A DNA stretch of 64,000 nucleotides from Whitmania pigra (lineage: Eukaryota; Annelida; Clitellata; Hirudinida; Haemopidae), in NCBI GenBank assembly GCA_021613335.1, contig JAJTWR010000266.1, forward strand, positions 3,739,001-3,803,000, read 5' to 3'. Position 1 is the stretch's first letter. Each line of letters starts with the position of its first letter. Made by a program: the position numbers and the translations under genes. This document shows positions 965 to 24,930 of this stretch, in pieces. A model generated the notes under the pieces. That model was not told the origin of the DNA, did no database searches, and saw nothing but the letters and a program-made list of their open reading frames with translations.

Positions 965-1341
965 CTATGATTCAGATCGCTCGTCGACAAAAGACTGAAA
1001 GTCAACGCTAGATGAGGGAGCACTCGATGCTTTCCAAAACGTGGGTGCCCCTGGATATTTGAAGCTGTCGTAAATTCCGGCATTGTAGACACTTCTTTCT
1101 TGGTATTGTTCTGCGTCAGAAATGTCTACCACCGTATTTGGAGAATGAGTTGTATTTTTCCGTTTCCACTTTCTGAGTGTCACCAAAGCAAGTACAACTA
1201 AAGCCAATATTATAATGAGGAGCCAAACGAGAAGGGCATAGAAAGACATTTGCAATTGGTTCGAGCTTTGCAGGACTTTCTGTAGACTTGACTCAACTTT
1301 GTCTGCTGTATCCTCATTTTGACCAACGGCAGACGCCGATG
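965..1341 (-). other. transmembrane and cytoplasmic exon of the giant collagen
   Basis: The exon follows acceptor TTTGTAG and is in phase with the EGF exon upstream. It encodes a short extracellular linker with several Gln and Ser, then a hydrophobic helix ([18 protein letters not shown]), then a basic stop-transfer RKWKRK. A polar tail of about 65 residues ends ...[12 protein letters not shown]. The tail has tyrosines in [12 protein letters not shown] and YDSFKY contexts that could be phosphorylated or sorted, but no motif I can name with certainty. The charge order (signal peptide at the N-terminus, basic residues after the helix) fits a type I protein. Confidence 0.8.
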
Positions 1342-22300: not shown

Positions 22301-24930
22301 CATGGGCCCATCTGCACCACTTGGTCCTGTACTACCAACGCTTCCGGTATCACCCAGTTGACCTTGAACTCCTGTCGCTCCAATTCTACCAGCATTACCC
22401 ATTGCACCTGGTGAGCCCGGATAGCCCGGGGGTCCAGAAGGGCCTACCTGTCCTGTATTTCCTGTGAAACCTTGTGGACCAGTAGCACCAGTTGCTCCGT
22501 TGGGTCCTAAAAATAGGATGTCGGTATTAATTATTAATCCAACAACTTGTTTATCATTCCACATTGTTGAAATAAGATGTCACCCATATTTATTTAAAGT
22601 GTATAAATTTGAAATTGGTCATCACCTCGGGCTCCAGTAAATCCCGGAGAACCAGGCGATCCTGAGCCTCCCGTCGCACCAGTTGACCCCATTCCTCCTT
22701 CAGCAGATGATCCAGGAGGGCCAGGTTCTCCAACTGGTCCTGTATAACCTGCAAAACAAAATAATGTTAGCATTATAAACAAATAATTTCATCCTAAACT
22801 AGACAAACTTCAATCGTACCTGTAAAACCTCTTGGTCCTGTCCTACCCTTTGGACCATCGGGACCTATAACGCCAGGAATGCCAGCATCACCAGGGCTTC
22901 CTCGAGGACCCGGCGCTCCTGTTTGCCCAATTTCCCCAATTATTCCTTTATTCCCTTCATCACCCGGTAGCCCAGTAGCCCCAGTAAAGCCTATTCCGGG
23001 TGGCCCAGTGTCTCCCGTATGACCACTTAGGCCAGTAGGTCCTGATTATGAAGCGAAATGAATGTTTTTCCCAAACTGATAATATTTTAATAGTACTGGT
23101 AATCAAAAAAAAGTAATTTTATGAAAGCTCAAATTTGTTTACTTAGCCATCCACAAACATTCTTAATTATAATTTTTGCCAACAAATAAACTGTTTCAAT
23201 GCAGAGTTCAGTTTATTTTTATTTTATTTATTTATTTATTTATTTATTTTATTAAGTGGGTAGAGGACCGAAGACTCTTACCTGCCCACTATCAAACAGC
23301 AAAACATTGAGAAAAGAATTTAATGTGATTGGTTTTTTAAACAAAACTAGTTTTTCAAATCACCAGTCGAGCCTTGAGAACCAGCAATTCCAGTTCGACC
23401 AGTTACGCCTTTTGTTCCATTACTTCCAGGATATCCTCTGGTATCCACTTGAAATGATTAATATTTATCATTAACCATCATAATAAATTAATAACAATAT
23501 AATATAATAATAATAGTATAAATATATATTTATAACAATCTTAAAAATGAGAGTGCAAAACTTGATTAAATTAAAATTTTTTAACGCAAAATATCTTATA
23601 TTTTAATTTAATCTCCGTAATGCCAAAACAATGTCACGCATGTTTGAAGCCGAACAAAGGTATGGCGAATGTTTCTATTTAAAGTCTCGAGTTATATTTG
23701 GATGAGTTGAAAGACTTGAACAACTTGCAGTGACACGAGCGTAACCTCTCAAATATGTGTGGGGTATGTGGATAATGAATTATACCAGTTAGGCAGGTGC
23801 ATTAGTATTATTATTATTATTATTACGTCATCCGTTGGAAATGTCTAGCGCTGCTTTTAAATCTTTTAAAGTTACATTTTATAATAAAATTCTTTAAATT
23901 AATTGTGAAATAAAACGTAAACAAATAAAATTATTTGTGAGAGTATATGTAAATATGAAACTCCACGAAAGGGCTTAATTTCTCACATGGGTTTATTCTG
24001 ACAGCTACAGAGAACACATTGGGCAGAGCAATGGATTGGAAGGTAACCCTGTCTCCCAGATTCAAATCTACTCCTGATGGTGTTACGTTGTAGTAGGTCC
24101 TGTGGTTTGGTGAAAAGTCGAAAGATATTGCACCACTTTCACCTTCGTATTGCCAGCCTATCCTGTCTTCGTACAAGACGAGGACAGTTTCTATGACTGT
24201 GTACTGAGAATATAAAAATTACTGCAATGTTCACAGGTTGAAAGATTAATAAAACATGTCTAAACGTTGTAGGAAAAATAAAACATTAAAAAAAAATAAA
24301 GAACGATTTACGTTGTATAGCGTTTGTAAAGAATTTCCCTCCGGCAATTGCAGTTTCACTTGCCAGACTAGCGACATGGCCCGTGTGTCAGGAAAAGATA
24401 CTGGTCTCCAGACTTGAAGTCTTAATTTATTGCTTTTGCCATCCAAATTCGTGGAGGCATTTTCGACAAAAATATGAAAAGACTTGAGGACACCACTGGG
24501 TAATGTCGTGTCGTAATCGATAAATATTCTCTTCGCTTGGCTGGGTAATGTTGACCCTCTTGAAGTACAGTTATTGCCGTAGAAGCCTTCATTGGAACGA
24601 AATACTAATCCTGCGCCTGATCATGCGATTATGAAAGAAATAAGAAAATTGTTTCAATAAATTTTCATGCCACCGATATTTCTTATATTTTGCTATCTCA
24701 CCTCCAGGAATGTATCCGGGATCTGGTGATACGTCTGCATGGAAGACATATGAATCATTCACTTATTAAATGATGAATAAGAATCAAATTGAGACAAAGA
24801 TTATTATTAATAATCATTATTACAAAAATATAATTATTATAAAAAAAAATTATCAGAACAAACAAATAGAATACAAACATTCCGTCAAAACATTCTGAAC
24901 GACGAGAAGGAGAAACGAATAGACAAGCAT
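965..24930 (-). CDS. giant type I transmembrane, threonine-rich collagen (46 exons)
   Basis: The gene is read on the minus strand. It starts at ATG 24930-24928, which opens a hydrophobic signal peptide ([16 protein letters not shown]), and stops at 967-965. Order of parts: signal peptide, LQVWRP beta-sandwich-like domain (about residues 20-200), Gly-X-Y collagen (about residues 205-5400), four EGF-like exons, a transmembrane helix and a tail of about 70 residues. I placed GT-AG borders for 46 exons. Summed coding length is 17,136 nt, exactly 5,712 codons with the stop. Nearly all collagen exon borders are phase 1 and split the Gly codon (G|GN). Known membrane collagens (XIII, XVII, XXIII, XXV types) are type II with an N-terminal anchor; here the signal peptide is N-terminal and the anchor C-terminal. 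A matrix or cuticle tether is an inference. The exact first exon and single exon borders could be wrong; the overall gene is very likely real. Confidence 0.85.
1413..2319 (-). other. four EGF-like exons of the giant collagen
   Basis: Exons 2319-2173, 2064-1936, 1860-1699 and 1526-1413, all symmetric phase 1, as is usual for shuffled EGF modules. The first is Cys-rich and EGF-like but divergent ([11 protein letters not shown] ... FYCTC). The second has the six-Cys pattern [12 protein letters not shown] ... [16 protein letters not shown]. The third has [12 protein letters not shown] ... [16 protein letters not shown]. The fourth starts DIDEC, a calcium-binding EGF opening, but has only four Cys and lacks the final C-x-C..C part, so it is truncated. 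The domains sit between helix and membrane and probably act as a stalk or binding site. Confidence 0.75.
2737..2913 (-). other. last collagen exon of the giant collagen
   Basis: This exon begins by completing a split Gly codon and runs 17 more Gly-X-Y triplets (GRT GVF GHT ... GPP GFP GPA). It then leaves the collagen pattern with the acidic linker SDGSDFTE. It ends at a strong donor (GTGAGT) in phase 1. The next exon is the first EGF-like one, so this is the hinge between triple helix and the EGF region. A tRNA-derived SINE lies in the intron upstream of it (about 2990-3180). Confidence 0.8.
2990..3180 (-). mobile_element. tRNA-derived SINE, copy 1
   Basis: On the minus strand this reads like a Leu/Ser-type tRNA head. 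It has an A box (GTTAGCCGAATTGTTTA), then, about 50 bases later, a B box (GTGTTCGAAACCC), followed by a tRNA-unrelated body ending in GCGCTATATAAATGG and GCGCC copies. A second copy at 52858-53016 shares the order and most bases. The copy lies in an intron of the collagen gene in the same orientation. The family is not named; the tail resembles widespread animal SINE tails. Confidence 0.75.
3192..21366 (-). other. collagen region 2: uninterrupted Gly-X-Y helix, 31 exons
   Basis: Exons: 21366-21160, 21046-19418, 19272-18796, 18708-18043, 17900-17694, 17519-17088, 16845-16243, 16150-15764, 15668-15120, 15055-14840, 14712-14488, 14407-14228, 14154-13993, 13896-13726, 13470-13156, 13075-12896, 12831-12670, 12603-12415, 12349-11504, 11321-10530, 10458-10009, 9527-8169, 8078-7719, 7647-7099, 7031-6744, 6561-6157, 6081-5677, 5600-5421, 5316-4237, 4141-3909 and 3741-3192. 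Each length is a multiple of nine, except the last pair, which join in phase 0 and sum to one. The total is 14,454 nt, or 1,606 triplets, with no register break. Thr is the commonest Y residue (18 of 44 triplets counted in the exon at 5677-6081, against 3 Pro). GFT, GAT, GNT and GST recur. Four exons exceed 800 nt (1629, 1359, 1080, 846). Confidence 0.85.
21488..23447 (-). other. collagen region 1: short exons with Gly-X-Y interruptions
   Basis: Exons 23447-23364, 23041-22820, 22748-22626, 22506-22144 and 21664-21488. All are in phase with each other and begin by completing a split Gly codon. Unlike the rest of the helix, the last four have lengths that are not multiples of nine. The register breaks are visible: GPPGIGFTG in the second exon, GSSAEGGMG in the third, [11 protein letters not shown] in the fourth, and a GSG step where the fifth joins the next exon. 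Such interruptions give flexible points in known collagens. Here they sit only at the N-terminal end of the helix. Confidence 0.75.
23987..24930 (-). other. N-terminal part of the giant collagen: signal peptide and LQVWRP beta-sandwich-like domain
   Basis: Exons 24930-24879 (signal peptide), 24734-24702, 24616-24312 and 24203-23987. The first exon ends at a weak donor (GAAT then GTTTGT) but in the phase needed by the next one. The domain reads [14 protein letters not shown], then [15 protein letters not shown], then [10 protein letters not shown], then [14 protein letters not shown], then [18 protein letters not shown] and a closing segment ending SVAVRINP. The pattern (aromatic residues, LQVWRP in the middle, then G-D-R-V-x-F) is an extracellular all-beta module I recognise only loosely from marine invertebrate proteins; I cannot name a Pfam family. 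Its place before the helix suggests chain selection or ligand binding, which is inference. Confidence 0.6.

What the first reader, a model, noticed from the sequence alone, without database searches (positions are those of the whole stretch)
965..24930. Giant collagen with a C-terminal membrane anchor (type I topology)
The sequence shows signal peptide, beta-sandwich-like domain, over 5,000 residues of Gly-X-Y, four EGF-like exons, one transmembrane helix and a basic-start cytoplasmic tail, in one phase-consistent 46-exon model of exactly 5,712 codons. Known transmembrane collagens are type II and much shorter. A chain of this build could reach more than a micrometre from the cell surface, linking the cortex to an outer coat or cuticle. 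I know no described protein with this order of parts.
Basis: partly seen in the sequence, partly recalled or inferred. Interest (0 to 1): 0.88.

Follow-up and report, generated by a model that had tools for sequence, protein, structure and literature searches.

The report
Giant membrane-anchored worm collagen trio
A segmented worm carries a collagen gene whose rod part is about five times as long as that of ordinary fibre collagen and which is built to stay fixed in the cell membrane at its far end, and its genome holds two sister genes of almost the same length, as if three chains wind together into one rod more than a micrometre long.

Summary
On the minus strand, 24930-965 gives one phase-consistent 46-exon model of 5,712 codons: hydrophobic start, unnamed domain, 5,188 collagen residues, EGF-like exons, one transmembrane helix, a ~65-residue tail. 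Corrections: the fourth EGF is truncated (four Cys), and breaks lie only in the first ~320 collagen residues; 1,623 triplets (1.39 µm) then run unbroken.

New here: this 178-Mb genome (annelid markers) holds two paralogues with the same order of parts, one with its transmembrane exon hidden by N. Their last helix runs are 1,622 and 1,622-1,623 triplets. The four breaks and 13 exon boundaries coincide in all three, while X and Y residues agree only at background. This fits three chains held in register in one heterotrimer and argues strongly against a chimera. Three further long collagens end in a transmembrane segment without EGFs.

Size and Thr at Y (39%) recall annelid giant cuticle collagens, but printed giants are far richer in Pro (PMC12403961); I saw no membrane anchor described there. 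Most likely: an epidermal cuticle collagen whose C-terminal anchor nucleates the helix. Location and trimerisation are inferred.

The parts
24879..24930 (-). exon 1: start codon and hydrophobic signal-like segment
   Evidence: signal peptide judged by eye; an out-of-frame upstream ATG lies at 24943 (by eye)
24702..24734 (-). exon 2: short linker
24312..24616 (-). exon 3: first half of the N-terminal domain (GNN, RLQVWRP, LVW motifs)
   Evidence: no Pfam match
23987..24203 (-). exon 4: second half of the N-terminal domain
21488..23447 (-). exons 5-9: collagen segment with four breaks, placed as in both paralogues (the fourth falls at the exon 9/10 junction)
2737..21366 (-). exons 10-41: unbroken collagen helix, 1,623 Gly-X-Y triplets, introns splitting the Gly codon at phase 1 (one phase-0 exception at 3909/3741)
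2173..2319 (-). exon 42: EGF-like, six Cys
   Evidence: best Pfam stretches lie in the later modules
1936..2064 (-). exon 43: EGF-like (FXa_inhibition PF14670, E 4e-12)
1699..1860 (-). exon 44: EGF-like (cEGF PF12662, E 3.4e-09)
1413..1526 (-). exon 45: calcium-binding EGF, truncated, four Cys (PF07645, E 6.7e-07, profile 1-29 of 43)
965..1341 (-). exon 46: juxtamembrane stretch, transmembrane helix (from residue 5620), basic stop-transfer, ~65-residue cytoplasmic tail, stop

Best explanation
A type I membrane-anchored giant collagen of an annelid. Shown from sequence: the order signal-like segment - unnamed domain - collagen - EGF exons - transmembrane helix - cytoplasmic tail in one gene, and two paralogues with the same order of parts and helix runs within one triplet. 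Inferred: the three chains meet at the ER membrane through transmembrane, juxtamembrane and EGF parts, which sets the register and starts triple-helix folding at the C end, zipping towards the N end as in fibrillar collagens. Inferred: the resulting ~1.4 µm heterotrimeric rod stays rooted in the epidermal (microvillar) membrane and projects into the cuticle, where the N-terminal domains at the tip bind another coat component; Thr at Y (39%), probably O-galactosylated as reported for the Riftia cuticle collagen, stands in for hydroxyproline.
For: Gene model. Two paralogues with N-domain and EGF tail at the two ends of one collagen gene; the Ridgeia domain protein P0002 matches only these three loci (5 of 5 matches at E up to 10). 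Last helix runs 1,623 / 1,622 / 1,622-1,623 triplets with four breaks in the same places. Shared exon boundaries 16 of 18 (window vs C330), 13 of 19 (window vs C342), 15 of 18 (C330 vs C342), 13 in all three; permuting exon order reached at most 4, 4 and 5, and 0 of 20,000 as many. X/Y identity at lag 0 is not above other lags (0.128, 0.141, 0.138 against means 0.139, 0.147, 0.144; lags of one triplet either way 0.126-0.150): so length is held while residues are saturated. Thr at Y 0.39, 0.373, 0.415. Heptad pattern before the transmembrane helix beyond shuffles in 3 of 5 chains at p<0.05, all five together 0 of 5,000. Annelid markers: PF16915 (Eryth_link_C), 4 of 5 matches over the cut-off; 58 antistasin matches; the one relative of the N-domain with a species name shown is from the annelid Ridgeia piscesae. 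Giant annelid collagens, and glycosylated Thr in Riftia cuticle collagen, in print. Collagen fibres as main component of the cuticle, secreted apically from the epidermis in Riftia: PMC8789280 passage. C-to-N folding in type I collagen and the opposite in transmembrane collagens: PMC11304992 passage.
Against: No expression, protein or location data. The printed giants of alvinellids and earthworm have Pro in 33-40% of X and 22-33% of Y (Table 1 of PMC12403961); this chain has 8.6% and 10.9%, its paralogues 8.8-13.5% and 9.8-11.7%, so composition does not match them and rests on the Riftia report alone. The same paper says no siboglinid gene prediction, Riftia included, reaches such length. Heptad pattern weak in this chain (p 0.073) and absent in C235 (p 0.89). 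C342's transmembrane exon would lie in a 5-kb run of N, so its anchor is not shown; C342 has two Gly-to-Ala substitutions in the helix and one exon boundary off by one triplet. Signal peptides of C330 and C342 were not located. The longer second trio could be the main cuticle collagen, leaving this trio another role.
Confidence: 0.5

Rival explanations
1. The membrane anchor serves biosynthesis only: the three C ends are held together in the ER, the helix folds, and the ectodomain is then cut free to build loose cuticle fibres.
For: Annelid cuticle collagens are described as very long helices with globular domains (PMC11766948 passage), which fits released molecules; for nematode cuticle collagens and MACITs, release by furin-like cleavage is proposed (passages; abstract start of PMC10538796).
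Against: No RxxR site between helix and membrane in 5 of 6 chains; the one in C330 lies inside an EGF module; the window chain has one RR (C342 only up to the cbEGF). Cleavage by other proteases is not excluded.
Confidence: 0.3
2. Same protein, but not a cuticle component: e.g. a gut or sensory-cell surface coat, or a tether on the basal side.
For: Location cannot be read from sequence; a second trio of long, more Pro-rich collagens exists and could be the cuticle collagen; Pro content here is far below that of the printed giants.
Against: Thr-rich Y and size recall annelid cuticle collagen.
Confidence: 0.3
3. Each of the three genes makes its own homotrimer; equal length is inherited and kept by other constraints, such as stacking in a lattice.
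For: Equal length alone does not prove co-assembly; matching exon boundaries show common descent.
Against: Residues are diverged to background while differences of about one triplet are all that is seen; breaks are kept in the same places.
Confidence: 0.3
4. The gene model is a chimera of neighbouring genes or an assembly artefact.
For: Giant repeats can be misassembled, a caution also given in PMC12403961.
Against: Same order of parts at three loci, exon boundaries matching to the triplet, all junctions in phase.
Confidence: 0.03

Closest known systems
Annelid giant cuticle collagens (Alvinella, Paralvinella, Eisenia predictions; Riftia cuticle collagen)
   Same: Phylum; very long helix (7,719-8,859 residues for alvinellids in PMC12403961); much Thr at Y here, glycosylated Thr in Riftia (cited in PMC11766948 and PMC10141479)
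   Different: No membrane anchor, EGF exons or N-terminal domain is described in the passages read; this trio is shorter (5,188 collagen residues) and Pro is low (8.6% X, 10.9% Y against 33-40% and 22-33% in the printed giants)
MACITs (collagens XIII, XXIII, XXV, COL-99)
   Same: Membrane-anchored collagen with a single transmembrane helix
   Different: Type II with an N-terminal anchor and interrupted helices; here type I with a C-terminal anchor and an essentially unbroken helix
Nematode cuticle collagens
   Same: Apical coat collagens, about two thirds predicted membrane-bound
   Different: Mostly under 350 residues, those with an anchor type II, all interrupted (PMC11304992 passages)
Fibrillar collagens (type I etc.)
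   Same: Long unbroken helix; C-to-N folding, inferred here; chains of equal helix length in one trimer (recalled)
   Different: 1,014-residue helix (PMC4450265) and a C-propeptide, COLFI (recalled); no COLFI match here
VWA/EGF membrane collagens at C340 of this genome
   Same: Collagen followed by EGF modules, a transmembrane segment and a tail
   Different: Far shorter helix and a VWA domain between EGFs

Membership tests
MACIT membrane collagens | type II topology with N-terminal transmembrane domain | tested here: not met
   the only hydrophobic 19-residue windows above 1.6 start at 5614-5628, C-terminal to the collagen
MACIT membrane collagens | interrupted collagenous ectodomain | tested here: not met
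   four breaks near the N end only; 1,623 triplets unbroken
MACIT membrane collagens | conserved C-terminal cysteine motif of the ectodomain | not tested
   the motif was not compared; the C end here is a cytoplasmic tail
Annelid giant cuticle collagen | animal is an annelid | tested here: met
   PF16915 in 4 places over cut-off (that the family is annelid is recalled, and the 14 control genomes say nothing of other animals), Ridgeia relative of the N-domain; the SSU search did not complete
Annelid giant cuticle collagen | very long continuous helix | tested here: met
   1,623 triplets, 1.39 µm
Annelid giant cuticle collagen | Thr frequent at Y, as in Riftia | tested here: met
   672 of 1,723 triplets
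Annelid giant cuticle collagen | Pro-rich X and Y, as in the printed alvinellid and earthworm giants | tested here: not met
   8.6% and 10.9% against 33-40% and 22-33%
Annelid giant cuticle collagen | galactosylated Thr and location in the cuticle | not testable with these tools
   needs protein
Annelid giant cuticle collagen | sequence homology to a sequenced annelid cuticle collagen | not tested
   no such sequence was at hand; only the N-domain has a named annelid relative
Fibrillar collagens | C-terminal COLFI propeptide domain | tested here: not met
   Pfam scan of the C-terminal 320 residues lists 9 families at E<=10, three of them EGF types over cut-off, none COLFI
EGF-like modules | Cys spacing and Pfam match | tested here: met
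   PF14670, PF12662, PF07645 over cut-off; fourth module truncated
N-terminal domain: TNF/C1q-like or carbohydrate-binding jelly roll | same fold | tested here: inconclusive

The most novel reading that the evidence does not exclude
Annelids build their body coat from a class of collagens anchored in the membrane by the C end: two sets of three genes, each set making one in-register heterotrimer of fixed micrometre length, with the membrane acting as the trimerisation platform in place of a C-propeptide.
Probability: 0.38. Interest if true: 0.88.

Novelty: new variant of a known kind. Interest (0 to 1): 0.76.

Why it matters
If right, it gives a candidate molecular identity and topology for giant annelid surface collagens, says how such a coat could be fixed to epidermal cells, and offers a natural molecular ruler: a ~1.4 µm rod whose length is kept to about one triplet across three genes while X and Y residues have drifted to background. 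It adds a topology (C-terminal anchor, helix folding away from the membrane) to the transmembrane collagens, and makes heterotrimer formation directly testable.
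Full report
THE GENE. Splicing the minus strand at the 46 exons gives 17,136 nt and 5,712 codons including the stop, without an internal stop and with every junction in phase. Exons, high to low coordinate: 24930-24879, 24734-24702, 24616-24312, 24203-23987, 23447-23364, 23041-22820, 22748-22626, 22506-22144, 21664-21488, 21366-21160, 21046-19418, 19272-18796, 18708-18043, 17900-17694, 17519-17088, 16845-16243, 16150-15764, 15668-15120, 15055-14840, 14712-14488, 14407-14228, 14154-13993, 13896-13726, 13470-13156, 13075-12896, 12831-12670, 12603-12415, 12349-11504, 11321-10530, 10458-10009, 9527-8169, 8078-7719, 7647-7099, 7031-6744, 6561-6157, 6081-5677, 5600-5421, 5316-4237, 4141-3909, 3741-3192, 2913-2737, 2319-2173, 2064-1936, 1860-1699, 1526-1413, 1341-965. 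Introns between collagen exons split the Gly codon at phase 1 except for one phase-0 intron, and 29 of 37 collagen exons are exact multiples of nine bases.

THE PROTEIN. Residues 207-5394 are collagen: 1,723 counted triplets with four short breaks, all before residue 526; the rest is 1,623 triplets without a break, 1.39 µm at 0.286 nm per residue. Y is Thr in 672 of 1,723 triplets and Pro in 197. After the helix come three six-Cys EGF modules and a fourth with four Cys; Pfam finds FXa_inhibition, cEGF and EGF_CA over cut-off. One transmembrane helix follows (best 19-residue hydropathy 3.43, basic residues after it), then a tail of about 65 residues.

NOT ALONE. The window is G000:C184:3739001-3803000 of a 178-Mb genome. 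Searching that genome with the tail (47 matches, many of them EGF modules elsewhere) and with the N-domain (8 matches) gives two more loci, C330 and C342, where both ends flank a giant collagen on the same strand. Tails are 33-34% and N-domains 37% and 26% identical to the window's. C330 has the full tail with transmembrane helix and stop. In C342 the run of N at 87501-92500 begins where the transmembrane exon should follow. Signal peptides of the two were not located.

LENGTH HELD, RESIDUES FREE. In C330 and C342 the four breaks sit in the same order at the same places (segments 14/14/13, 24/24/25, 34/33/34, 32/33/34 triplets), and the final run is 1,623 / 1,622 / 1,622-1,623 triplets, C342 with two Gly-to-Ala changes. 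Counted in triplets, exon boundaries coincide 16 of 18 (window, C330), 13 of 19 (window, C342) and 15 of 18 (C330, C342), 13 in all three; permuting exon order gave at most 4, 4 and 5 in 20,000 trials per pair. One C342 boundary is off by one triplet (1312 against 1311). Yet X and Y residues at the aligned register are no more alike than at other offsets, in fact slightly less. Residues have drifted to saturation while length has moved by about one triplet at most. The plainest reason is that the three chains must wind together in register. This is inference: a homotrimer lattice with fixed spacing would give the same signal.

MORE OF THE KIND. PF01391 shows three further long collagen loci, C183, C235 and C110 (150 of 1,295 first-look candidates were scored, so the list is a lower bound). 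Their fetched ends show a helix joined in phase 1 (read by eye) to a short juxtamembrane stretch and a transmembrane segment, without EGFs. C235 and C110 share exon lengths near the C end (23, 24, 153 and 67 triplets); C183 differs there. In the fetched parts Thr at Y is 25-32% and Pro at X 16-26%. At C340 two tandem shorter collagens carry EGF, VWA (PF00092), more EGFs and a transmembrane segment. Collagens that end in a membrane segment are thus a group in this animal; common descent of the two trios is not shown.

WHICH ANIMAL. PF16915, by recall the annelid erythrocruorin linker domain, in four places over cut-off, 58 antistasin matches, and an N-domain relative from the siboglinid annelid Ridgeia piscesae say annelid. 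Leech is my guess from genome size and antistasins, from general knowledge. The SSU search did not complete.

HOW IT PROBABLY WORKS. A passage in PMC11304992 says that type I collagen starts its helix at the C end while transmembrane collagens fold in the opposite direction. Here the membrane lies at the C end, so nucleation beside the membrane would run C to N. The stretch just before the membrane shows a heptad pattern beyond shuffles in C183 (p 0.0002), C330 (0.0044) and C110 (0.036), not clearly in the window chain (0.073) and not in C235 (0.89); all five together 0 of 5,000. A shared furin-type site between helix and membrane is missing, which leans towards a lasting anchor but does not prove it. 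Thr at Y would need stabilising: PMC11766948 and PMC10141479 (passages) report glycosylated or galactosylated Thr in Riftia collagen, citing Mann 1996, which I did not see. [quoted passage not shown] Recalled, from no call: annelid cuticle collagens measured at about 1.5 and 2.4 µm.

WHAT IS KNOWN. PMC12403961 (section 12 read whole) lists predicted alvinellid collagens of 7,719-8,859 residues and an earthworm one, without mention of a membrane anchor, EGFs or paired chain lengths in that section. Against a simple identity: those giants have Pro in 33-40% of X and 22-33% of Y, this chain in 8.6% and 10.9%, and the paper says siboglinid predictions hold none so long. PMC4678570 (passages) did not find MACITs in annelids. 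PMC4450265 (part of the abstract and passages),014 residues the limit of fibrillar helix length, which this helix exceeds about fivefold outside that family. Ten paper searches gave no listing of this build; that does not show it is absent from print.

VERDICT. Observation confirmed; interpretation supported and extended. A new variant of a known kind: a giant annelid collagen with a C-terminal membrane anchor, in a trio of matched length.

Noticed in passing
G000:C183:710109-745211, C235:1631392-1665696, C110:2398211-2433028 (L036-L042): Three further long collagens ending in a transmembrane segment without EGFs; C235 and C110 share exon lengths near the C end. Interiors not fetched.
   Followed up: partly
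L022-L023 (C340:1861001-1881000, minus): Two tandem shorter collagens with EGF, VWA, further EGFs and a transmembrane segment.
   Followed up: partly
P0003, P0004: The unnamed N-domain also occurs in proteins without collagen: one with a Thr-rich stalk and transmembrane helix, one with a Ser/Thr stalk and hydrophobic end. A candidate new extracellular domain family.
   Followed up: partly
window 29873-32368 (+) and 43572-38320 (-): Two paired-type homeobox genes (homeodomain; OAR motif at the second), by recall like rax and homeobrain of the HRO cluster.
   Followed up: partly
window 62419-62790 (+) and L005:6367-6741 (+): Two similar ORFs; Pfam calls the L005 one TNF (3.2e-06) and gives nothing for the window one.
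   Followed up: partly
window 49545-50147 (-): F-box protein exon (PF12937, 6.8e-12).
   Followed up: no
window 27054-27463, 37239-37643: Long ATT/TAT trinucleotide tracts open in several frames, also in other fetched stretches of this genome.
   Followed up: no
window 24943: An upstream ATG out of frame with the collagen start at 24930, giving an overlapping short reading frame in the 5' leader (read by eye).
   Followed up: no
C330:1554429, C342:102430: Introns with a GC donor in the Gly-splitting register, where no in-register GT donor was found nearby.
   Followed up: partly
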